A DNA stretch of 53,823 nucleotides, taken from Clostridia bacterium 41_269. Its GTDB lineage: Bacteria > Bacillota > DTU086. The stretch lies in contig LGEZ01000015.1 of the NCBI GenBank assembly GCA_001508005.1, positions 1 to 53,823 on the forward strand, read 5' to 3'. Below are positions 24,666 through 52,336 of this stretch, in pieces (position 1 is the stretch's first letter; each line of letters begins with the position of its first letter). The notes below the pieces were generated by a model. It made no database searches. It had not been told where the DNA came from and saw only the letters and a list, made by a program, of their open reading frames with translations. Made by a program: the position numbers and the translations under genes.

Positions 24666-26360
24666 TCACATTTCAACTGCGATTTTAAACCGCACTGCAT
24701 TTTCGCTGCCCGCTTCGCTGAGCTCCATGAGGTTTATGTTATAGACTATCTCCATTTTATCACGCCGGAGAACAATTCTGTCTATGATCTGCTTCAGCAT
24801 TTTCTTTTTGGTTTCCACGGGAGACTCTTTAAAAATTTCAAACCAGCGGGGGGCCAGCCTTGCAAACTGTTTTAAGCTGTCCCGCTCTACCTGCTTCTGC
24901 TGAAGTTCAGCCTTAAGCTCTGCTATCTGCTCCGTTATGACTTTCTCTTCTTCTTCCGCTCTTTTGATTTCCCTGGCCATCATTTCTTCAGAATAAATGC
25001 TTCCTTCCGGATCGGCAAAATACTGGTTCAAACGATCAACCCAGCTGTTTAAACGCCGCCGCACTTTTTTAAGCTCCCTTTCAAGCTGCGCAATCTGCCT
25101 GCTGATCTGGCTGCGGGCTGAAGCCTGCTTCATGTTTACATAGTGCTCTAAACTTCCCAGATCAACATTTTTTAAAAAACTTTCAAGTTCGCTCATAAAA
25201 ATGCCGTCAATCTTTTTCTGTGAGTAGCTTCCCTGACCCGAACAGAACGCCGAACCTTTCCTGGCATGAGTTGAACAGCGATAGACTGCCTTTTTGTATA
25301 CATACACCTTTCCGTTTGGCCTAACAGTTTTTGCGTTTCTGGTGCGGCTTGAGATAAACCCTTTCCCGCAGTAGCCGCACTTTAAAAAGCCCGTCAAAAG
25401 AGCTGTGCTGTCCATGGATCTTGCATCCGGTTTTGTGTTCTTTGAGCGCTTTTTCATTACTTCCATCAGCTTCTGCCATTCCTCAAGGGAAATAATTGTG
25501 TATTCTTTGATGGGCTTTGGATTTCCGTTTTCGTCCCGGGGGATAATTATCTCTGGATTGTTGATGTCATACCAGTTTTTAATCCTAACCCTTGATGTAG
25601 GTGTACTGCCCGGTTTCGTTCGGTTGTAGGCCGGCAGACCGGCTATGATAGGATTCTGCAGAACGGTTCTAACCCTTGCGTCCGTCCACAAACGATTTTC
25701 CCTGGTGCGGTAGCCATGCTCATTTAAGTAAACGGCAATCTTTTTACTGCCCCACTCTTCTTCAAGGTAAAGACGCTTCATGAGGAGAAGTATTTCCGCT
25801 TCTTTCTGATTGATCTCCAGTGGAAGCCCTTTTTTTGAATCCGGAAGTTTAAATCCATAAGGGGGCCTGCCGCCTGACCAGTGCCCCCGTTTTGCCATGT
25901 CCATCATGGAAGTTTTTACCCTGATGGAAGTGTTCTTGCTTTCGGTTTCAGCCTGCCAGCCTTCGATAAAGCGTAGAAGTTTGTCCATCTGATCATCGAC
26001 GTTTAGAGAGCGTCCGCCTGGAGCATCAGCAACCGCTATTACTTCTACCCCTGCATCGTAAAAAGACTTCAGGATCAGCGGATATTCAAAGGACTGCCTG
26101 CTGAGCCTGTCAGCCTTAAATATCAACAGAACGTCAAATTTTCCCTGCAGGGCATCCGATAAAACGTCCTGCAGGATGTCCCTTTTATCCGAAGATATTT
26201 TGAACGCGCTGACGCCGGGCTCTATGTATTCTTTAACCAGTTCCCAGCCTTTTTCAGCGGCAAAATTCCTGATTGTATGCTGCTGTGCGGGTATGCTGTC
26301 GTCTTCGCTTTTCAACTGTTTTTTCGTTGACACCCTGTATAAGGCAGCCGCTCTGGTCAA
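24666..26360 (-). CDS. Large serine recombinase (integrase)
   Basis: Site-specific recombinase of 564 residues that integrates and excises the element. The resolvase catalytic domain (about 1-150) has the nucleophile Ser11 in YRVSTKKQ and the LIFKADRLSRQ segment. A recombinase domain (about 165-280, GRPPYGFKLP) and a zinc ribbon follow (CGYCGKGF, then CSTHARKGSAFC). A coiled coil (about 405-495) ends the protein, as in phage and ICE serine integrases. The TTG start at 26360 has AAGAAGGGA 7 nt upstream. It lies directly inside the tepA junction, so it is the likely integrase of this element. Confidence 0.95.
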   Translation of the reverse strand: MTRAAALYRVSTKKQLKSEDDSIPAQQHTIRNFAAEKGWELVKEYIEPGVSAFKISSDKRDILQDVLSDALQGKFDVLLIFKADRLSRQSFEYPLILKSFYDAGVEVIAVADAPGGRSLNVDDQMDKLLRFIEGWQAETESKNTSIRVKTSMMDMAKRGHWSGGRPPYGFKLPDSKKGLPLEINQKEAEILLLMKRLYLEEEWGSKKIAVYLNEHGYRTRENRLWTDARVRTVLQNPIIAGLPAYNRTKPGSTPTSRVRIKNWYDINNPEIIIPRDENGNPKPIKEYTIISLEEWQKLMEVMKKRSKNTKPDARSMDSTALLTGFLKCGYCGKGFISSRTRNAKTVRPNGKVYVYKKAVYRCSTHARKGSAFCSGQGSYSQKKIDGIFMSELESFLKNVDLGSLEHYVNMKQASARSQISRQIAQLERELKKVRRRLNSWVDRLNQYFADPEGSIYSEEMMAREIKRAEEEEKVITEQIAELKAELQQKQVERDSLKQFARLAPRWFEIFKESPVETKKKMLKQIIDRIVLRRDKMEIVYNINLMELSEAGSENAVRFKIAVEM

Positions 26361-31242: not shown

Positions 31243-34212
31243 TTAACATTTTATCCTTTCTACAATGGCTTCTGGATTGTCTAACCAGTAAGCTTTGTAC
31301 CCATCGGGTAGTAGACTTTGATCTTCAGTGTATAAAAACAAATATACTCTTACTTTTAAATCGTTGTATGGAAAGGTGCGCGGCTTTCCTTGAGTATCCT
31401 CAAAAATTTTTTTGAAGCCTTCAATTTTATGTTCAAATTCTGTATGCTTTATTCCCTTCGGATCTGCAAAAACAATATAGTAATTTTTGTCTTTCTTTAA
31501 CCAAAATATAAAGTCCGGATAAAAGTAGCGAAGGCGGTTGGCTTCGGGATCAAAGTACGGAATATAGATTTCGTCTACGTTTTCGTCTATTTTACTAAAA
31601 ACCCACCAGTCGAAATTGCTAAATTTGTTTCCATCCTGACTGATATATTCTTCAAGATCGTTTATAAAACGCACTTCACTGGGATGCCGTATTATATGGC
31701 TTATAAAGTCGATTTTTTGACTATCGGATAGGAGTACTGGCATGTAGTAATGATGAGCAACATGTCTAATCTGCAGGTTCTGCCCGTTAACTTGAAAGAT
31801 TTCTTTATTAGACAGAGATTTTAACTGATTAATAAATTCATCAAAGGATAGTTCTTGCGAGTCAAATTTTCGACGCAATTCTGCCATTTTATTTGGGTAA
31901 TTTTTGACATGAGCAATTTTTTTGGATAATTCTGCAATGTCTTCAAGGAACACTTTTATTTGCTTGAAGTGGCTTATTTCGTTTTCCAGTAGCTTAAAGT
32001 TATCTAACTCTTCGGGTATTACACGAAAATAATTGAACAACTGACTGATAACCAGTTCTATACGACTATAGTAACGGGTAGCCCTAGTATTGAAATACTT
32101 ATCTTGATCGCTTATACACTGTTTGAGCAGTTTGATTTGATCAGGAGATGCGTTATGCAGAGCGACCAGTAATCTTTCATCAGCAAGATAACTTATGTAT
32201 CTTTTGAGCAGTTCCAATTCTTCGGCTGCAATCTTAAACTTACCCATCTTATATTTTTCCTGCTCTATTAAGGGCCGGTCTGCGAAGCGATAGATTGGAA
32301 CAAGCAGGGGATGGTCGTCAACTGTTTCATAATTTACTTCCAGTTCTATTAAATGGCTTGTTTTAACAGGGTCTTCTAAATTCAAGTTTTCAATAACTTT
32401 ATTAAGAGCATTCCTGTTGGTGCCGAATAAGAAGAGAGTTTCCAAAGGCAGCACAATATCTTTTATTTTAGGAAAAAGGACACGCGCTCTTTCGTGTCCA
32501 GCGTTGTACAGGTTTTGCAATCGCTTTCGATTGCCAGCCAATGGCTCAATTCTCACGCCGCGACCTATGGACTGCAAGATAAATTTACGCGCTTCCGTTC
32601 CCGTGCCGATGTTTATAAATGTTATTACGTTGGGACGGTTTGAATCCCAACCTTCATAAAAAGAACGGGAGCCCATGAGGATGTTGATGTATGAGTCGTC
32701 TTCATTAAGGCGCTGGAAAAACCCCTCGTCGTCAAACCCTTCGAGGATATCATAACCAGTCAGTTTGTTTTTAAGCCATTCGCTTATATCGCCGATCTTT
32801 ATGAGGGCAAAAGGCTGGTCAGCATTTTTCAGTTTGAAAGCAATCTCTTGACGATTGGAAGGTCGAACCCAAACTTCGATGTCGCCGGGATTTTCAGCGT
32901 TATAAACGCCCTTGAAGATGTCTTCGGGTTTTAATAAGTCATAAAGCGCCAGATCCAATTTTAACTCTTGATCTTCGAACTTCATCTGTGGCCTATCGGC
33001 CAGTTCCTGCCGCAGTTCTTGTTTGGCCTTCTCCCATACCTGAGCTTCAAATTTGCCCTTTCCTATATCCCTTATCTGCTGGAAAAAGAGTTTAAGATCG
33101 GAATCTTCGGTGTTAACGGAGTTTACCAAAACCAACAGGAGCGGTCGATGGTAAACGCTATTGCCCACTTTACGCTGAACCATTTCGAAGGCACGATGTA
33201 TGTATGCAAGCATAAGTAGGGTTTTCAGTACTACTTTCTTTTTTTCGTCTTCGCTGTAATCTTCATCGTCACGAAATGCCCTGTTTTCTTGCTTCATAAT
33301 GGTTATATGTTTTCCGTAGCCATTTTTAATAAAACGTGCTAAGTTAAAGTCATATGCAGTAGAAATTATATCGTGTTTGTCGGTAAAAGTGGCAGAGAAG
33401 TTGAATAAAAATCCGTTGCGGCTCATAATACTGTATATGTGCTGGCGTTTTGATTCCTCTTTGTCGCCTTTGTGAGCTTCATCTAAAAAGATAAACCAGC
33501 GGCCGTTATCGTCATAGTTTCGGAAGTCCACAATACGCTCTTTTTGTTCGTCACTAAGATTATCAGAACGATAAATGAATACAGTTACTTCATGGTTGGA
33601 GAATAAAGATGCTACTTTCCGCTTGGCTTCGGGGTATTCGCGCAAATCTCTAAGACGGATAAAAAGTTCGTTTCCGGCATTGAATTCGTCCACGTGAACG
33701 CGCAGCTGTTCCAGTAGATCGTCGCGATGGGCAAGAACAAGAAGGTTATGCTGAGGGATTTCTCCAACACGAGCTAGCCTCCACAGTAGCTCCAACATTT
33801 TGACAATGATTAGTGTTTTGCCACTTCCCGTAGCCATCCAAAAAGCCATTCGGTTGATGAAGTTTTTGTAAGAGATACAGTTGTTTTGAGCAGGATAGTG
33901 GTCTGTTAGCAGATTGCGTATATCTTGCCTTTGCTTATCAATAGATATACCTAGATCATCTATATCAATGCCGTTTTGGCGATACCATTCATAAAACTGC
34001 TCTTTGCGCCTGGTAACCGCATTCTGAGATTCACCGGGTTTGTAATCGACGCAATCTTCATAGTACTTCCATAAACCTCGGAGGGCAAATTTAAGCGCTT
34101 CTTGCTGGTAGTCAAAGAGACTTTTATCCTGGGAAAAAGTAGATAAGTCAAAGCACGTCCAGGTAGCCGGAAGATCTGAGATATCCTTTAATAAGTCCTG
34201 TAACTTCAACAT
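31243..34212 (-). CDS. res: Type III restriction enzyme, Res subunit
   Basis: ATP-driven restriction subunit of 989 residues. Helicase motifs: Q-like FDYQQEALKFAL, Walker A MATGSGKT near residue 130, DEAH-type Walker B FIFLDEAHKG, motif III FSATFTD, and motif VI QSIGRGVRIEP. The C-terminal nuclease motif is PDFIFWLKKDKNYYIVFADPKG (PD...DPK). Type III Res cleaves only in complex with Mod, after two inversely oriented sites meet. It begins 8 nt after the mod stop, so the genes form one operon. Because mod is interrupted, Res is probably orphaned at present. Confidence 0.93.
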   Translation of the reverse strand: MLKLQDLLKDISDLPATWTCFDLSTFSQDKSLFDYQQEALKFALRGLWKYYEDCVDYKPGESQNAVTRRKEQFYEWYRQNGIDIDDLGISIDKQRQDIRNLLTDHYPAQNNCISYKNFINRMAFWMATGSGKTLIIVKMLELLWRLARVGEIPQHNLLVLAHRDDLLEQLRVHVDEFNAGNELFIRLRDLREYPEAKRKVASLFSNHEVTVFIYRSDNLSDEQKERIVDFRNYDDNGRWFIFLDEAHKGDKEESKRQHIYSIMSRNGFLFNFSATFTDKHDIISTAYDFNLARFIKNGYGKHITIMKQENRAFRDDEDYSEDEKKKVVLKTLLMLAYIHRAFEMVQRKVGNSVYHRPLLLVLVNSVNTEDSDLKLFFQQIRDIGKGKFEAQVWEKAKQELRQELADRPQMKFEDQELKLDLALYDLLKPEDIFKGVYNAENPGDIEVWVRPSNRQEIAFKLKNADQPFALIKIGDISEWLKNKLTGYDILEGFDDEGFFQRLNEDDSYINILMGSRSFYEGWDSNRPNVITFINIGTGTEARKFILQSIGRGVRIEPLAGNRKRLQNLYNAGHERARVLFPKIKDIVLPLETLFLFGTNRNALNKVIENLNLEDPVKTSHLIELEVNYETVDDHPLLVPIYRFADRPLIEQEKYKMGKFKIAAEELELLKRYISYLADERLLVALHNASPDQIKLLKQCISDQDKYFNTRATRYYSRIELVISQLFNYFRVIPEELDNFKLLENEISHFKQIKVFLEDIAELSKKIAHVKNYPNKMAELRRKFDSQELSFDEFINQLKSLSNKEIFQVNGQNLQIRHVAHHYYMPVLLSDSQKIDFISHIIRHPSEVRFINDLEEYISQDGNKFSNFDWWVFSKIDENVDEIYIPYFDPEANRLRYFYPDFIFWLKKDKNYYIVFADPKGIKHTEFEHKIEGFKKIFEDTQGKPRTFPYNDLKVRVYLFLYTEDQSLLPDGYKAYWLDNPEAIVERIKC

Positions 34213-34220
34213 TTGTTATA

Positions 34221-34925
34221 TCACCACCAAATTAATGGTTTGACAAGTTCCCAAGGGGGAGTTGTAAGGCTTACACGCCTTCCATCTTCAAATTCCACTT
34301 CGTCGGGCTGACTAGGGTCATCCGGCCTTGTGTAAATTCGGCGTATCCATTTGCCGGTGACGCAGGAGAGTGTCTCAGCAAGGTCGATGTTGTCATAGAG
34401 CTTGCTAAGATCTACCCGGATCTCGTTTTTCTCTAAGTCTACAGTCATTACCTTTTCGCCGGTCTGTGTGTTGTCCAGCATCTTAGTATCGCGAAGAAAA
34501 ACATATTGGTTGTAAGGGTCGGTCTGGACAAAAATGGGTTCGGCGTCCTTGTAACAAGCCCGGCGGAGAACGTCTTCATACTGTTCCAATCGGAAATATT
34601 TGATAAAGTGGCTGATGCCTTTGCCGTTTTCCTGAGCTCTGCCGTCTTTCCATTGGTCAGAAAAAATAACCTTTTTAATTCGTGGCAGCAATACGGTATC
34701 AAAATAGTCCGCCATTTCCACAAGAATATACTTGCGTTGTCCTCCATCATGGCGGTTCAGGTCGATTACTGCATGAGCAGTTGTGCCGGAGCCCGCGAAG
34801 AAATCGAGAATAATAGCCGATTCATCGAAATTACATACTCTAATGCAGTCGCTTATGAGATCGACAGCTTTTGGATAAGCAAACAATCCATGTTGCCCAA
34901 ATAAGTTCTTTAAAGTTCTAGTACC
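34221..34925 (-). pseudogene. mod: Type III methyltransferase Mod, C-terminal part (split by IS)
   Basis: 234 residues: GTRTLKNLFGQHGLFAYPKA, then the SAM-binding motif ILDFFAGSGTTAHAVIDLN, and a normal C-terminus ending just before res. The N-terminal part lies at 36,920-38,926. The family segment SATDY-GTRTLKNLFG is cut exactly between Tyr and Gly by an IS200/IS605 element. This half alone could only be translated from a GTG inside the IS right end and lacks the DPPY catalytic motif. Confidence 0.9.
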
Positions 34926-35086
34926 GTGACTTCCTCCCCACACCTAAAGGTGTAGGGCTTCCTGGCGGCAGGCGCACGCACCTGCCGGGTTACACCGGTG
35001 CGAACGACCCTTTTAAAACCCGTTGCCGGAGGGTCTCCCGGAGGGGACCGTCACTTCCGTCCCGACTACTCCAGGTACCGGGCCTT

Positions 35087-36400
35087 TTAAGCCGCGGCCC
35101 TTGGAGATACTTGCACAAACCTGTTGGACCTCTTGTCCCAGCGCCAGACCTGCGGTTCGCCGAAGGTGGAGGGCAGTTTCCAGCCGACGCAGCTCCCGAA
35201 GAGGTACTGTTTCAGCAGGTTGGCCGCGCCGTTGAGGTCGGCCTGAAGGATTAACCTGCACTTTCTGCACACCCACAGCCCGCGGTGCTTCCTCCAGGCA
35301 GGGTTGCGGGCACCGCAGAAACAGCACGTGGAGGACGTATTCTTCTCCGTCCAGGAGTCAGTCTGCACGCCCCGCATGAGGTTCTTGTAACGTTGCTCTG
35401 CGTGCAGCCGGTCGTAGGCCATCTGGTTGATCTTCTGGGTGGCCTTTTTACCCTTCATTCCGGTGCGGGCGGAGCGGCGCAGGTCGGTAAGGTCGCCCAC
35501 CACCGCAAAAGCCACGCCCTCGGCTTCGTCCAGCTCCGCAAAGAGCTTCGTCAGGGCGTGTTCCATCTGCCTGATGCGGCGGTCGAGCTTTTTCAGCCTG
35601 CGGATTTTCGCAGAAAGACACCTTCTCCACCTGCGGGAGCCTTCCTTTAAGCGGCTCATTTTTTCCTGGAAATCGGCTATGGTTTTGTTCCTGTACTGCA
35701 CCTGGGAAAGAATTTCCCGGCAGATGAAGAGGTCCAAAATGCCGCTCAACGTGGCCCGCGCCACCAAGGCGGAGTTGTAGTCGTATGCCGAAACGGCGCC
35801 TGTGCGGTAAACGGGCACCACTCCCAGATCGAAGGTCACGTGGAGTACCAGATTTTCCACTTTGCGGCGGCGGACGACCGCCTTCACCTTGACCTCGACT
35901 GGGGTACCCCTCACTCCCGTGCCGTCGGGCAGGGTGACCGCATCCCACCCGCCGGGTAGTGCGACTTTAATGGGTTCCTTCTTCCGGGAGAGCTTCAACA
36001 CGAGGGAGTCATCCTCAACATTGAAGCCTTGCCTCTTCCAAGTGACGGTGCGGAGGTGGTTTTTCGGCTTGAAGTTTGGCGGGTTCATCTCCAGGTGACC
36101 GTTTTCCCGGTGCTTGCGGTAACCGGACACGGCTTCAAAGTACTCTTCCACCACCGCCTGTGCCGATTGGGAGTGCAGCTCCTTCCACACGGCAAAGGAC
36201 TTAAACTTCGCCTTGAGTTCCGCCTCCGTTGACCAGCGGTTCTCCTGCTTGAGGGTTTCGCGGCTGTGCCAAACGCAGGAGTTCCAGATACGGTTGGCCG
36301 CCAGCATGGCGGGTTGGAAAAGCGGTAATACTTCCAGGCCCAGCGGGAACTGCTTGGTCAAAAGGAGACGGTGAGGGTGCGATTTGCCGCTCCAAGCCAT
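35087..36400 (-). CDS. tnpB: TnpB-like RuvC protein with altered catalytic glutamate
   Basis: Accessory protein of IS605-type elements; active relatives are RNA-guided DNA nucleases using an RNA from the element right end. About 437 residues from the ATG at 36400, which has GTAGGTGA upstream; a GTG at 36409 abuts the tnpA stop. RuvC residues: the first Asp is in AVSAYDYNSALVA, the last in LQADLNGAANLL, and the zinc ribbon has CCFC and CRKC. The usual glutamate (V-x-E-N/D-L) is replaced by Gly-Asp in FAVVGDLTDL, so nuclease activity is doubtful unless another residue takes over. A 100-residue Lys/Arg-rich helical insert lies between motifs. The right-end RNA would cover roughly 34926-35100. 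Confidence 0.85.
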   Translation of the reverse strand: MAWSGKSHPHRLLLTKQFPLGLEVLPLFQPAMLAANRIWNSCVWHSRETLKQENRWSTEAELKAKFKSFAVWKELHSQSAQAVVEEYFEAVSGYRKHRENGHLEMNPPNFKPKNHLRTVTWKRQGFNVEDDSLVLKLSRKKEPIKVALPGGWDAVTLPDGTGVRGTPVEVKVKAVVRRRKVENLVLHVTFDLGVVPVYRTGAVSAYDYNSALVARATLSGILDLFICREILSQVQYRNKTIADFQEKMSRLKEGSRRWRRCLSAKIRRLKKLDRRIRQMEHALTKLFAELDEAEGVAFAVVGDLTDLRRSARTGMKGKKATQKINQMAYDRLHAEQRYKNLMRGVQTDSWTEKNTSSTCCFCGARNPAWRKHRGLWVCRKCRLILQADLNGAANLLKQYLFGSCVGWKLPSTFGEPQVWRWDKRSNRFVQVSPRAAA

Positions 36401-36409
36401 ATGTTTCAC

Positions 36410-36805
36410 CTACTTGTCCTGGCACTCTGCAATGTAGCGCTGGATAGTTTCGGCAGACACCGTACCGGCGGTACCCACGTAGTACGTTCTAGTCCAGAGC
36501 CGCGGCCCCGTCTGTTTGCTTAACTCCGGAAACTTCTGGCGCAGGTAGCGGGAAGTATACCCTTTAATGGTGTTGATGAGGACAGAGGGAGCATGCCTTG
36601 GAGGAGCTGAAACAAAAAGGTGTACGTGATCGGGTTGGATGGAAAGGCTGAGTACCTCTACCTCCCTTTCATCGCAGACCTTCCGAATCAGCCGTTCTAG
36701 TTCCTCGGCAACTGGACCCACCAAAATCTTGCAGCGGTATTTCGGTATCCACACGAAGTGATAGTTTATGTTGTAGTGAGCATACCTGGTCTTTTTAGTT
36801 TTCAT
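36410..36805 (-). CDS. tnpA: IS200/IS605 Y1 transposase TnpA
   Basis: Single-strand transposase of 131 residues. The HUH metal motif is in QPDHVHLFVSAP and the catalytic Tyr in AETIQRYIAECQ near the C-terminus. The N-terminus HYNINYHFVWIPKYR is characteristic. It is intact and full length, so the element could still move and excise precisely when its DNA is single-stranded, as during replication or conjugative transfer. The tnpB-like gene follows with no gap. Confidence 0.95.
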   Translation of the reverse strand: MKTKKTRYAHYNINYHFVWIPKYRCKILVGPVAEELERLIRKVCDEREVEVLSLSIQPDHVHLFVSAPPRHAPSVLINTIKGYTSRYLRQKFPELSKQTGPRLWTRTYYVGTAGTVSAETIQRYIAECQDK

Positions 36806-36866
36806 AGCAAATTCAGTATACTACACTCAGACAAAAAAACAACCCAGCTTTTACTTTTTAACCCGG

Positions 36867-36915
36867 CCGCCGCTTTCATCCCGTCCCCTGAAGGAGACGG
36901 GTCTTCCCGCGGCGG
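36867..36915 (-). repeat. Left-end hairpin of IS element no. 1
   Basis: Outer arms CCGCCGC/GCGGCGG and inner arms CCCGTC/GACGGG separated by unpaired bases. The layout, including TTTCATCCC and CTTCCC in the same places, is shared with the left end of IS no. 2 (52374-52418). Confidence 0.75.
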
Positions 36916-36919
36916 TTTT

Positions 36920-38926
36920 ATAATCTGTAGCAGAGTACTCCTCTTTGTCCCACCAGGTTGGTGGTGTTATGCCTTCTTCGGGCATCCTCGACTTTATATA
37001 AATCGCAAGTTTTCCATTACGATCTTCATCAACTTTAACTTCATTAAGGCTTTGCAACAAGCGTTCAGGAGTCCACTTCCATCTCCTCTGTTGGTTATTT
37101 TCATCTATAGGCCATAGCACCTGTTCATCATCTGCAGGAGGTTCAAGAACAACCCATTCTTCCAATTCTTCATTCCACTCTAATTTAGGAACTCTCCAAG
37201 TTCCAGAAGGGTTTACATAAATAGGATAAAACATTCTGGGCGCTTCTTTTCTAAGACCGCCATGTTTGCGAAAATTGACCCATTCGAAAGCACCTTTATC
37301 ATCTTCTTCCCTGTATCTGGCTTTTTGAGCTTCAGTTCGCTCTAACCGCCCAACAGTCGCCGCATTAGTCTTTGCAAAAAAAAGGGCATATTCGTGGTTC
37401 AGAGAGAAGCCCTTTGGTGTTGAACGCCCTGCAGGATTACTCCTTACTACAGCAATTCCTAACTCTTCAGGGAAGTACAACGATAAGACATGTCTTAAGT
37501 GCAATAATTCGTTATCATCGATAGCAACGCATATTATACCGTTGTTTTTTAGGTAATCCTTTGCAATAGATAGCCTATTTTCTAATAGTGTCATCCAGGA
37601 TGAGTGTTTGTACATATTAACATAGTCAATCTTGCTAGACTCCGTATTATATGGCGGGTCGATGTAGATACAGTTTACTTTCTCATGAAACTTGGGCAAA
37701 AGCGTCTTCAAGGCTTGATAATTTTCACTACAAACAAGCCAACCGTCAAGAACCTGATCTAGCTGGTCGAATAGACTCAAAATTAGTATCTCAAGGTCAG
37801 GAAAATATTTGGTGTCCACGGGCAAATACTGATAGCGGTCGCTCAATCTTTGATCTAATAAATCGGTTTCCTCCCATACGTCGACGGGTTTGAACTCATT
37901 ATCTATCATACCAAGACTACGCCATTCTTGTAGTTGAGCTACCATACCAGGATGTTCGAACAGTCGTTGGAGCATATCCAGCCCTTTTTCTTGAGCGGCA
38001 ATTCGGTCTAACGTAATTATGTAATGACTATCAATTACAAATTTTGGTTTATTCCATATTTTAACTAGTTCATCCTCAAATTGGGCGATAAAGTCAATAA
38101 TCTTGTAGGCTATTTCCTTGAGCACCTGAAGTTGACGAATCCGCTTCTCAGACCATATCGTGCCCCCTCTAGAACCTTCTTCCTTATATTCAGGCTCGAA
38201 TACGTACTGGTAAAGCCACAGGTCAAACTGCTCTCGCAGAAACTTCCGGGCGTCCTTGCATATGAAGTAGTCTACCTCGCTCTGGCGCTCAAATATGCGA
38301 AAGGCACGCTCGAGTACCTCCTCCCCGGGAACCTGGTCTGTATATCGGGGCAGGCCCAGCGCATTCTTGATTTCTTTGCGTATGTTGTCAAGCTTGGTCT
38401 TTCGCCCTTTTTCGGAGTAAGAAACGTTAAAGATTATAGCTCCGTCGTTTCGTATTTCTTTAAAGCTATAAACCAACTCACGTTTCTCATTATTTTTCTT
38501 ATGCTCCAGTGAAGACACATCAAAGAAGAAGCGAAAACTGTCCACCTCAATTTCCATGCTCTTAAATAAGCGATCAGTTTTGACGTAATAAAGCATATGA
38601 GTCTTCCAAAAAAGCATCACATCTCGATCATCGGTATAAACCTGTTCGTATACACGCTCATGTAAGGGAGTGTGACGATAATAAATAGAACCAGATTCGC
38701 TAAAGTAACGGTGAAAGAAGGTATAGAGTCTGTCAAAAAGTTCTTCTCGAAAATCAGGAAAGGGCTCAAGGGCTTTATTTATATCTTCCATTAAACGAGG
38801 AAAGACACTTTTTTCAAAATAGCAGGATTTTATTCTCATTAGGTTTATGAAACCAGATTCGCCTTCAACCTTTGTTCCAACGAATATATCTTTTAAAGCG
38901 TTTAAAAACTTTTGTTCTTTGGTCAC
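36920..38926 (-). pseudogene. mod: Type III methyltransferase Mod, N-terminal part (split by IS)
   Basis: 669 codons from the GTG at 38926 (GGGAGG 8 nt upstream) to the IS boundary; the frame then runs 23 codons into the IS and stops at 36851. Beta-class N6-adenine methyltransferase: the long N-terminal region is of the type III kind, and motif IV reads YIDPPYNTESSKIDYVNMY near residue 435. The SAM-binding FAGSGTT motif is on the other side of the IS. The split protein lacks that motif, so modification is predicted to be off. Removing 34926-36919 joins both parts into one open frame of 903 codons. Confidence 0.92.
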
Positions 38927-39174: not shown

Positions 39175-40962
39175 TTATTTTATAAAACCCTCCCAACCCG
39201 AAGGAGAGCTTTCTACTTGCACATGTATATCCTCAGCCTTAATATTCCTTTCCCTGAAAGGCGTATATTTACCGCCTGAGGTAAGCAAACAGGCACTGGG
39301 ATGTTCTCTGTAAGAAAGCTTTTTGAATCTTAAAGGATTGCCTCCCATCACAAGAGCTATTCCTTCATCAAAGGGGAGCCTGCCCACTTCCGATGGGTCC
39401 ATGAGGGCGCGCTCTTTAGGCGATACGGACACCTGCGCAGTATCCAGTACACCAGCTTTTCTCCTAAAAGAGAACTGCTCCACCGTAGCAGAGCCCAGAA
39501 GGGATGATACATACTCCGTAGTCTCCTTTTCAGCCGCTCCCCAGACCAATCTTAAGGCGCAGCAGCCGATGATTTCCTTCCAGGCTTCGTAAGGGTATCT
39601 CTCTTTTAACTGGGGGAGCGACTGGGCAACCATCATGCAGTTTATGTTTCTGCCCCTCATGGTAGCAATCATGTCTTTAAAGTTGGGCAGGGCCCCTATG
39701 GTGCAGAATTCGTCCATGATAAAGTTCACCCTTACGGGGTTTTTGCCTCCAAACCTGTCCGCCTGACGGGTGAGCCTCAAAAAGAGAAAAGAGAAGAACA
39801 GCGACGATAGAAATTCAAAAGTCCGGTCCGTGTCCGGTATGACGCAGTAGTAAATGCATTTGCGCCTGCCGGGAAGCTCAAGGTCTATGTCGTTTGCTGA
39901 AGTTAATTCCCGGACGGCTTTACTCTGAAAGACCTTCAGCCTTGTACCCAGCCCTGCGATAATGTTGCCCCGGGTTTTTGGTTCGGCCATGCAGAAAAGG
40001 TTGTACGGCCTTTTAGCAGGGTGGTCGTCCGGAAGGCATCTGAAGGTGCCGTCCAGTTCATCGAAACTGCCGCTGGTGAGGAAGTCGTAAATGCCCGCAA
40101 GGCTTCTTTCTTCAGGCTTCATTTCGTGGACAGCGTACAGGACCAAAGCGTTTAAAAGGTTCTGCTCGGATCTCTCCCAGAATTTGTCCCCGCCTGGACG
40201 GTGAGCCGGCCCTTCCGTGTTTTCGATGATGATCTGGGTCAACAAATGGGCGTCCAGCTCGGATCTCACTTCGTCAACGGGGTTCCAGCGATCGCTCATA
40301 TTCATGTCCACAAGGTTGAAGGAGCGGATGACATAGCCCTCATTCTGATAAAGGGTGAGAGTCTCACGGAGTATTTCCCCTTTGGGGTCGGTTGCTATTA
40401 CGGATTCTCCGGAGACAGCCGCCTGAAGGAGATTGGGAAGAATAAAGCTCCACGTCTTTCCCGTCCCGGGAGGGCCGAACACAATGCAGTTGCGGTTCAA
40501 TCTCGGGTTGTCGTGACGGATGGGTTCCCCCTCAAAGGAGCCTATGAGTATCCCCGGGCCGTGACCGAAGCTGAAGAATTTTTCAGCTTCATCACGGGTC
40601 ATCCATCTGGATGTACCGCACGTTGGATCGTCGGAGACCTCAGGCTCCTTTCTGGGAAACAGCTTTTGATGCAGTTCCGGATAGCGCATGTAGTAAGCGT
40701 AGAATACTGCCGATACGCTTGCCAGAGTGATGATGTTGAGGATTATCCACACGGGGATTGAGCCATGAAGCGGGACGGCTATGGCTGCGTAAAAGGGATT
40801 GGTGAAGGACTTCTTCATGAGGTCCCAGTCGGAGAACATAAGAGAGATGCTGCCGAGGAGCCATGCGTCTAGGATGTAGATGATTAAAGCGATTGCGGTA
40901 ATTTTCAGGATTTTCTGTTGGGTCGGGGTGAGGTTTTTGAGCTTTTCTTTTAGGGTTTCCAT
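39175..40962 (-). CDS. VirD4/TraG-type conjugative coupling ATPase
   Basis: Type IV coupling protein of 595 residues that brings the relaxase-DNA complex to the transfer channel. Two N-terminal membrane segments (residues about 18-45 and 70-90), Walker A FGPPGTGKTWSF at about 163-171, and Walker B VNFIMDEFCTIG near 415 are visible, as is the family segment MATMRGRNINCMMVAQSLPQ. AAAGGAGG precedes the ATG. It is the clearest conjugation gene in the element. The 250-bp gap downstream to mod (38927-39174) contains nothing I can identify. Confidence 0.93.
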   Translation of the reverse strand: METLKEKLKNLTPTQQKILKITAIALIIYILDAWLLGSISLMFSDWDLMKKSFTNPFYAAIAVPLHGSIPVWIILNIITLASVSAVFYAYYMRYPELHQKLFPRKEPEVSDDPTCGTSRWMTRDEAEKFFSFGHGPGILIGSFEGEPIRHDNPRLNRNCIVFGPPGTGKTWSFILPNLLQAAVSGESVIATDPKGEILRETLTLYQNEGYVIRSFNLVDMNMSDRWNPVDEVRSELDAHLLTQIIIENTEGPAHRPGGDKFWERSEQNLLNALVLYAVHEMKPEERSLAGIYDFLTSGSFDELDGTFRCLPDDHPAKRPYNLFCMAEPKTRGNIIAGLGTRLKVFQSKAVRELTSANDIDLELPGRRKCIYYCVIPDTDRTFEFLSSLFFSFLFLRLTRQADRFGGKNPVRVNFIMDEFCTIGALPNFKDMIATMRGRNINCMMVAQSLPQLKERYPYEAWKEIIGCCALRLVWGAAEKETTEYVSSLLGSATVEQFSFRRKAGVLDTAQVSVSPKERALMDPSEVGRLPFDEGIALVMGGNPLRFKKLSYREHPSACLLTSGGKYTPFRERNIKAEDIHVQVESSPSGWEGFIK

Positions 40963-50832: not shown

Positions 50833-51939
50833 TTAGGCCGCCTCCAGGGCCAGCGCCCTCTTGAGTATGTTTCGGGCAGCGTTCACATCGCGGTCAAGCA
50901 CAAGCCCGCAGTGCGGGCACTCGTGTAGCCGAACAAACAGGTCCTTAGGCACGGTCTTCCCGCAGTTGCTACATTCCTGCGAGGTGCCGGACGGATTCAC
51001 CTTCACCAGCTTGGTACCAGCCTCCGCCGCTTTGTACTCAAGCATGGCGAGGAACTCGCTCCAGCTCACATCGTGGATGCTCTTCGCCAGGCAATGGGAT
51101 CTCACCATACCTCTGACATTGAGGTTTTCTACCGCTATAAAGCCGTAAACATTTACCAGTCCCCTCGACACCTTATGCAGGAAGTCCCTCCGCTGGTTGC
51201 GGACTTTGGCGTGGAGCTTCGCCAGCTTCCGTCTGGCCTTTTCCCTGTTGCGGGAGCTTTTTTGCTTGCGGAAAAGGCTCCTTTGGACGCATTTGAGCTT
51301 CCTTTCCGTTTTTATAAGGTGCCGCGGATTTTCGATATTTTCTCCGTTAGATAAAGTAGCAAACTTCTCCAGGCCGACATCGACACCGACAGCAGGCCCC
51401 GGACGAACTAAGGGGGCGGATATTTCTACTTCAGTTGCAAAAATTGCCCACCACTTGCCGGTTGCGTCGCGCTTTATGGTGACAGTTTTTACCTTGCCGG
51501 GAATTACCCTGTGCAGTTTTATGCGGACAAGACCGATTTTAGAGAGCCTCAGCTTACCGTCTGCAAGGCAGGCCCCTAGACCCTTGCCAAACTGCGTGAA
51601 TGTCAGCGACTTGTAACGCCCTTTGCCCTTGAAGCGCGGATAGCCGGGCGTGTCCCCATTTTTCACCCTCCGAAAGAAACCTGCAAAAGCCCTCTCTACC
51701 CTGAAGAGGACTTCTTGGGCTGCCTGGGAGTGAACTTCCCGCAGACGCTTATTCGCCTTTTTGGCTTCTCTGAGCCACACTTGCTGTTCGGTGCGGGTAA
51801 CGCTTCTCCTTTCCTGCTCCCAGGCATTTTTCCTTTGAGCCAGGGCTTCGTTGTATATCCACCGGCATGCCTCCAGCCAGTCCAGGAGCTTTTGCTCTTG
51901 TTCCTTATTCGGGTACAGCCTGAATCTGTAGTTACGCAT
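50833..51939 (-). CDS. tnpB: TnpB RNA-guided nuclease (canonical)
   Basis: 368 residues from the ATG at 51939, which overlaps the tnpA stop by 8 nt. Complete RuvC site: Asp187 in AVGVDVGLEKFATL, Glu271 in IAVENLNVRGM and Asp351 in DRDVNAARNIL. Zinc ribbon CSNCG...CPHCG. The N-terminal wedge/REC region (RFRLYPNKEQEQKLL) is typical. Active TnpB uses an RNA from the element's right end (here about 50732-50900) whose 3' guide is the flanking DNA, and cuts sites next to the transposon target motif. Very likely active. Confidence 0.95.
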   Translation of the reverse strand: MRNYRFRLYPNKEQEQKLLDWLEACRWIYNEALAQRKNAWEQERRSVTRTEQQVWLREAKKANKRLREVHSQAAQEVLFRVERAFAGFFRRVKNGDTPGYPRFKGKGRYKSLTFTQFGKGLGACLADGKLRLSKIGLVRIKLHRVIPGKVKTVTIKRDATGKWWAIFATEVEISAPLVRPGPAVGVDVGLEKFATLSNGENIENPRHLIKTERKLKCVQRSLFRKQKSSRNREKARRKLAKLHAKVRNQRRDFLHKVSRGLVNVYGFIAVENLNVRGMVRSHCLAKSIHDVSWSEFLAMLEYKAAEAGTKLVKVNPSGTSQECSNCGKTVPKDLFVRLHECPHCGLVLDRDVNAARNILKRALALEAA

Positions 51940-52336
51940 TACCTTGAGACTCGACATAACGCTTGACATCCTCCAGCTTCACCTCACCCACAGAGGCCAG
52001 GAAATAGCTCGGGGACCAGAAATGGCCGCCCCACAGCTCCTTCTTCAGGTCGGGGAATTTCCGAAAGAGGAGGCGCGCCGAAACCGACTTGAGGGAGTTC
52101 ACAAACTTCGACAGTTGCACCTGGGGTTTCGAGGCGAAAAGGACATGGATGTGATCCAGGTCGGTTTCCTGCTCGATGATCTGCACCCCGAACTTTTTGG
52201 CAACACCGAGGTTTATCTCTTTCAGGCACGAAGAAACCTCTGGTGTCAGCACTTTTTTCCGGTACTTCACACAGCAGACGTAGTGGAACCGAAGTGAATA
52301 TACTGAGTGGCAACCTTTATCTAGCTGGTACTTCAT
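51932..52336 (-). CDS. tnpA: IS200/IS605 Y1 transposase TnpA
   Basis: 134 residues with HUH motif in DLDHIHVLFASKP and catalytic Tyr in EDVKRYVESQ. Complete. It is clearly different in sequence from TnpA of element 1, although the left-end hairpins look alike. The tnpB start lies inside its last codons, indicating coupled translation. Confidence 0.95.
   Translation of the reverse strand: MKYQLDKGCHSVYSLRFHYVCCVKYRKKVLTPEVSSCLKEINLGVAKKFGVQIIEQETDLDHIHVLFASKPQVQLSKFVNSLKSVSARLLFRKFPDLKKELWGGHFWSPSYFLASVGEVKLEDVKRYVESQGNA

What the first reader, a model, noticed from the sequence alone, without database searches (positions are those of the whole stretch)
34221..38926. IS200/IS605 insertion in mod whose exact removal restores a 903-codon frame
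The N-terminal part is 669 codons (2,007 nt) up to GATTAT, and the C-terminal part is 235 codons including stop (705 nt) from GGTACT. Removing the 1,994 bp between them gives SATDY-GTRTLKNLFG, which reads as continuous Mod sequence. Y1 transposases excise without leaving a footprint. The IS could therefore act as an on/off switch for a type III restriction system; with Mod off, Res is harmless because it needs Mod.
Basis: partly seen in the sequence, partly recalled or inferred. Interest (0 to 1): 0.62.

Follow-up and report, generated by a model that had tools for sequence, protein, structure and literature searches.

The report
Jumping gene interrupts a DNA-methylase gene
A complete, probably still mobile IS200/IS605 element sits inside the methyltransferase gene of a type III restriction system and cuts it in two without losing a base, so excision would restore the gene, but that is true of any insertion by this family and nothing found here shows a switch.

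Summary
A 1,994-bp IS200/IS605 element (34926-36919, minus strand; Y1 tnpA plus tnpB) interrupts a type III mod gene after codon 669. Both ends were confirmed from independent copies in other genera: left end after TTAT or TTAC, right end ...GGAGGAAGTCAC. An uninterrupted homologue 65.6% identical over 902 residues reads SATDYGTRTLKNLFG across the site, as the joined halves do. The insertion separates catalytic motif IV (DPPY) from AdoMet motif I (FAGSGT), so Mod is almost certainly off. Neither half shows decay and res is intact, so the insertion is probably recent.

The switch interpretation is only weakly supported. Frame restoration is automatic for a family that makes no target duplication. 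The IS is single-copy here, no empty site or same-site insertion was found in relatives, and reads were unavailable. The element also carries a TnpB with a conserved D-E-D set (glutamate in the known alternative position) and a conserved, structured right-end RNA whose guide would be the mod sequence itself. By the ISDra2 model that nuclease cuts the empty site and reinstates the IS. Best reading: an ordinary, recent, potentially reversible knock-out biased towards staying off.

The parts
36920..38926 (-). mod, N-terminal part (669 codons, GTG start), with motif IV DPPY at residue 423
   Evidence: the ORF runs on into the IS and stops at 36851
34221..34925 (-). mod, C-terminal part (234 residues plus stop), with AdoMet motif I FAGSGT at joined residue 712
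34926..36919 (-). IS200/IS605-family element, 1,994 bp, no target duplication
   Evidence: ends set by copies in G020, G116, G322, G072, G390, G300
36920..36923 (-). target TTAT, kept at the left flank; predicted TAM of the element's TnpB
   Evidence: TTAT or TTAC precedes position 1 of the comparable copies
36410..36805 (-). tnpA, Y1 (HUH) single-strand transposase, 131 residues, HVH and Tyr present
   Evidence: PF01797 1.4e-40, NF033573 155.6 bits, PDB 2ec2 1.9e-44
35087..36409 (-). tnpB, RNA-guided nuclease of a divergent branch; D210, alternative Glu355, D391
   Evidence: NF040570 115.2 bits against a cut-off of 100; family alignment
36880..36905 (-). left-end guide AAGA (36902-36905) and hairpin (36880-36901)
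34926..34961 (-). right-end guide GAAG (34958-34961), hairpin (34936-34957) and cleavage site TCAC (34926-34929)
34926..35106 (-). putative right-end (omega/re) RNA scaffold: conserved and structured, overlapping the end of tnpB
   Evidence: 55 consensus pairs, 17 with compensatory change
34910..34925 (-). predicted 16-nt guide of that RNA: the mod sequence GGTACTAGAACTTTAA just outside the right end
   Evidence: position only, by analogy with ISDra2 (PMC8612924); sequence
31243..34212 (-). res, 989 residues, full length compared with relatives, start 8 bp after the mod stop
   Evidence: PF04851 3.4e-16, PADLOC REase_III; collinear matches to relatives over residues 1-983 and 4-988

Best explanation
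A self-mobile IS200/IS605 element inserted, probably recently, 3' of a TTAT in a type III mod gene by the family's single-strand 'peel and paste' reaction. It turned Mod off by separating motif IV (DPPY) from motif I (FAGSGT). Because insertion adds only the element, TnpA excision would give an exact mod again, so the knock-out is reversible in principle. It is expected to be biased towards staying off: TnpB, guided by an RNA whose 3' end is copied from mod just outside the right end, should cut the restored TTAT-GGTACTAGAACTTTAA site so that repair from the sister copy puts the IS back. Shown: the exact ends, target, intact genes, intact mod halves and the uninterrupted homologue. Inferred: that TnpA and TnpB are active, that excision occurs, and that Mod is off and Res idle.
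For: Exact ends and TTAT/TTAC target in independent copies. Guide and target covary: all 12 copies at TTAT have a guide ending in A, and 3 of 4 copies at TTAC have a guide ending in G, Fisher p = 0.007, as the IS608 and ISDra2 pairing mechanism predicts. The copies are related and were tabulated by eye, so p is only a guide. tnpA is full length with the HUH motif and Tyr. D210, Glu355 and D391 of tnpB are conserved in relatives. Right-end RNA conserved, with 17 compensatory pairs. Uninterrupted homologues: 70 of 86 loci have one full-length mod frame; L033 matches through the junction. No decay: the window Mod differs alone at 3 (N) and 1 (C) otherwise invariant columns, no gaps, among the lowest of ten sequences. 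ISDra2 TnpA excision restores an interrupted reporter, about 2e-3 per cell with ectopic TnpA (PMC2806898). TnpB cleaves the donor joint (PMC8612924).
Against: No reads, expression or methylation data, so activity of TnpA, TnpB or Mod is unproven. The element is single-copy in this assembly, so its recent movement here is not shown. The canonical RuvC Glu of TnpB is Gly in this branch and activity of this branch is untested. The AlphaFold model of TnpB was too poor to use (pLDDT 48.6).
Confidence: 0.85

Rival explanations
1. A true phase switch: the population is kept as a mixture of IS-containing (Mod off) and IS-free (Mod on) cells by TnpA excision and re-insertion, so the restriction system is switched on and off to the host's advantage.
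For: Exact excision restores the frame, tnpA looks intact, neither mod half has decayed, and res is full length. IS-driven switches exist for other genes (IS492 and IS256, cited in PMC9296519), and type III mod genes are known to phase-vary by changes in repeat number (PMC4751487).
Against: Frame restoration is automatic for this family. No empty site or repeated insertion at this site was found. mod has 21 TTAT sites on the same strand, so re-insertion at this same TTAT is not favoured. TnpB is expected to destroy the empty site (PMC8612924). Lack of decay is equally expected of a recent insertion.
Confidence: 0.06
2. A dead-end knock-out: the IS is immobile and the R-M system is simply decaying, as defence genes on mobile islands often do.
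For: Single copy in the assembly. R-M loci are often broken: at least four of the relatives have mod split by stops or frame changes.
Against: Both IS ends, tnpA, tnpB and the RNA scaffold are intact, and neither mod half nor res has decayed.
Confidence: 0.07
3. Mod still works as two polypeptides, the C part being translated from a GTG inside the right end of the IS (34943) and assembling with the truncated N part.
For: The C-part ORF is open from GTG 34943. The split lies just before the motif I half, and two-subunit DNA methylases are known in other classes (general knowledge). Tandem tnpA-tnpB transcription would run into the C part.
Against: No promoter-like site was found at the right end on that strand, no clear ribosome-binding site precedes the GTG, and the N part ends with foreign residues read from the IS.
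Confidence: 0.02

Closest known systems
ISDra2 and IS608 (IS200/IS605 family, tnpA plus tnpB)
   Same: Y1 transposase related in sequence (PDB 2a6m, 2vhg, 2xm3), hairpin ends, a short guide 5' of each hairpin, insertion 3' of a short target without duplication, TnpB and a right-end RNA.
   Different: Target TTAT here, against TTGAT (ISDra2) and TTAC (IS608). TnpB is of another branch with the alternative RuvC glutamate, and scores weakly against the IS200/IS605 TnpB model.
Type III restriction-modification mod-res operons (EcoP15I, Mbo45V)
   Same: Mod with motif order IV then I and Res with a ResIII helicase; closest solved Mod by sequence is Mbo45V 7dsu.
   Different: Mod is about 900 residues with a roughly 390-residue N-terminal extension and belongs to the PADLOC MTase_III subfamily PDLC03638; this copy is interrupted by an IS.
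Phasevarions (modA, modB, modD; PMC4751487)
   Same: Mod is the component whose on/off state would be changed.
   Different: Known cases switch by gain or loss of repeat units in mod; here the only candidate is the IS and no switching was observed.
IS-driven phase variation (IS492 in eps, IS256 in ica; cited in PMC9296519)
   Same: A gene is broken by an IS whose exact loss would restore it.
   Different: Those switches were shown experimentally and use other transposase families; here excision is only inferred and TnpB would oppose it.

Membership tests
IS200/IS605 family element | Y1 HUH transposase TnpA | tested here: met
   PF01797 1.4e-40; NF033573 155.6 bits; 2ec2 1.9e-44; HVH and Tyr present
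IS200/IS605 family element | Fixed ends with subterminal hairpins, insertion 3' of a short target, no target duplication | tested here: met
IS200/IS605 family element | Guide-target pairing at the left end | tested here: met
   covariation of the guide's last base with TTAT/TTAC, p = 0.007, one exception
IS200/IS605 family element | Excision and insertion of single-stranded circles by TnpA | not testable with these tools
   needs an excision assay or reads
RNA-guided nuclease TnpB | RuvC D-E-D residues | tested here: met
   D210, Glu355 (alternative position, 6 residues before the first Cys, as in PMC10711439), D391 conserved; canonical Glu position is Gly305
RNA-guided nuclease TnpB | Right-end RNA with structured scaffold | tested here: met
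   conserved fold with compensatory changes; no Rfam match; transcription not tested
RNA-guided nuclease TnpB | Guided cleavage at the TAM | not testable with these tools
   no assay possible
Type III R-M Mod | Beta-class N6/N4 methylase with DPPY and FxGxG motifs and an adjacent ResIII-type res | tested here: met
   PF01555 in both halves, PDLC03638 603.7 bits, res starts 8 bp after mod
Phase-variable Mod (phasevarion) | Both on and off states observed in one population | not testable with these tools
   no reads; no empty site found in viral contigs

The most novel reading that the evidence does not exclude
The element is a self-limiting epigenetic switch. TnpA excision turns Mod-Res on in single cells, and the mod-guided TnpB RNA, carried over or supplied by a sister copy, turns it off again by cutting the empty site and copying the IS back, so a selfish retention cycle would set the on/off ratio of a restriction system.
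Probability: 0.05. Interest if true: 0.65.

Novelty: new member of a known kind. Interest (0 to 1): 0.22.

Why it matters
As it stands it is a clean example of a footprint-free insertion that disables a defence system while leaving all its parts intact. If excision were shown, it would be a natural test of whether TnpB retention and reversible gene inactivation oppose each other, and of whether type III systems can be switched by a transposon instead of by repeat slippage.

Tried and rejected
Searched the wrong interval once. No close homologue of mod was found in the same genus or family. Rfam gave no credible match for the right-end RNA. The sigma-70 scan found no outward promoter at the right end. 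AlphaFold of TnpB with two sequences was too poor to place the active site, so no fold search was run. Literature searches found no paper describing an IS200/IS605 element as a switch of a type III mod gene; the library is open-access only.

Full report
Observation. On the minus strand the mod gene begins with GTG at 38926 and is open for 669 codons to GATTAT (36920). After 1,994 bp it resumes at GGTACT (34925) for 234 codons and a stop. In a script the joined halves give one 903-residue frame. The gap holds tnpA (36410-36805), a Y1 transposase, and tnpB (35087-36409).

Boundaries. The element is single-copy in the window's own assembly (repeated copies can collapse in draft assemblies), but copies, parts and derivatives occur in other families of the same phylum: G020, G116, G322, G072, G390 and G300. 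Their left ends begin at the same base after TTAT, or in a few TTAC, and their right ends finish at the same GGAGGAAGTCAC. This fixes the element as 34926-36919 with no target duplication. All 12 left ends at TTAT have a guide before the hairpin that ends in A; 3 of the 4 at TTAC have a guide that ends in G; Fisher p = 0.007. The copies are related and were tabulated by eye, with two degenerate end fragments left out, so p is only a guide. This is the pattern expected if target choice is made by base pairing, as in IS608 and ISDra2.

The gene. Seventy of 86 loci with a recognisable mod frame have one full-length mod ORF. L033, a Thermotogota MAG, is 65.6% identical to the joined protein over residues 2-903 and reads the same SATDYGTRTLKNLFG over the junction. 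Motif IV DPPY (residue 423) is before the insertion and motif I FAGSGT (residue 712) after it, so the truncated product, which reads on into the IS and stops at 36851, lacks the AdoMet-binding motif. Among ten full-length relatives the window protein is the odd one out at only 3 invariant columns in the N part and 1 in the C part, with no gaps; the others range from 1 to 15 and 0 to 4. Res is full length and collinear with its relatives. The system was therefore intact until recently, or is still under selection; the data cannot separate these.

What frame restoration means. Any insertion without a target duplication restores the frame when removed, wherever it lies. Several other copies of this same IS also have long open frames across their empty sites (315, 298 and 213 codons). 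The feature that made the finding attractive is thus a property of the family and is no evidence for a switch.

TnpB. This TnpB is divergent. It passes NF040570 (115 bits, cut-off 100) but is far below the IS200/IS605 TnpB model. In its close relatives the canonical RuvC-II glutamate is glycine (G305), while a glutamate six residues before the first zinc-finger cysteine (E355) is conserved together with D210 and D391 in the intact copies. This is the alternative-glutamate arrangement of Fanzors and a subset of TnpBs (PMC10711439). The 3' region overlapping and following tnpB is strongly conserved and folds with 17 pairs showing compensatory change. By analogy with ISDra2 the RNA would carry mod sequence (GGTACTAGAACTTTAA) as its guide, and the TAM would be the TTAT that excision brings next to it. 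In ISDra2 such a complex cleaves the donor joint, and homology-directed repair is proposed to reinstate the element (PMC8612924). If it works here, restored mod alleles would be attacked. ISDra2 excision itself is real and restores an interrupted gene, about 2e-3 per cell with ectopic TnpA (PMC2806898), so occasional mod-positive cells are plausible.

Setting. The R-M operon lies between a large serine recombinase (24669-26360) and a type IV coupling protein (39175-40962), which suggests an integrated mobile island. No mod of this type was found in the one genome of the same genus; in the family only a weak partial match (33% over 141 residues) was found in one of two genomes.

Verdict. Observation confirmed to the base. 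Interpretation partly supported: a potentially reversible knock-out, yes; a switch, no evidence, and the element's own TnpB argues against an easy one. Ordinary biology, cleanly documented.

Noticed in passing
window 50833-52336 (-): A second, different IS200/IS605 element: Y1 tnpA (51932-52336) and a TnpB of the usual kind (50833-51969); its TnpA is 28% identical to the first.
   Followed up: partly
window 35087-36409 (-): TnpB branch with Gly at the canonical RuvC-II position, conserved alternative glutamate, and Asp-Tyr/Leu-Asn at RuvC-I instead of the usual D-x-G; present in several genera of the phylum.
   Followed up: partly
L147 1448-1680; L148 1444-3032: Shortened relatives of the same IS: an ends-only element of 233 bp and a copy lacking tnpA; both keep the TTAT target.
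   Followed up: partly
window 24669-26360 (-) to 39175-40962 (-): Large serine recombinase, HNH protein, a small PD-(D/E)XK-like protein, the R-M operon and a TraG-type coupling protein: probably a mobile island whose right end was not located.
   Followed up: no
L038, L048: mod relatives split by one in-frame stop codon; L065 and L078 are split by a frame change. These may be sequencing errors or real decay.
   Followed up: no
L058, L083, L092: 1.3-1.5 kb lies between mod and res in these relatives, so extra genes can occur inside the operon.
   Followed up: no
G000:C8:34692-35029 (L144, L145): A broken Y1 transposase gene elsewhere in the genome, two overlapping pieces, one with a stop codon.
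   Followed up: no
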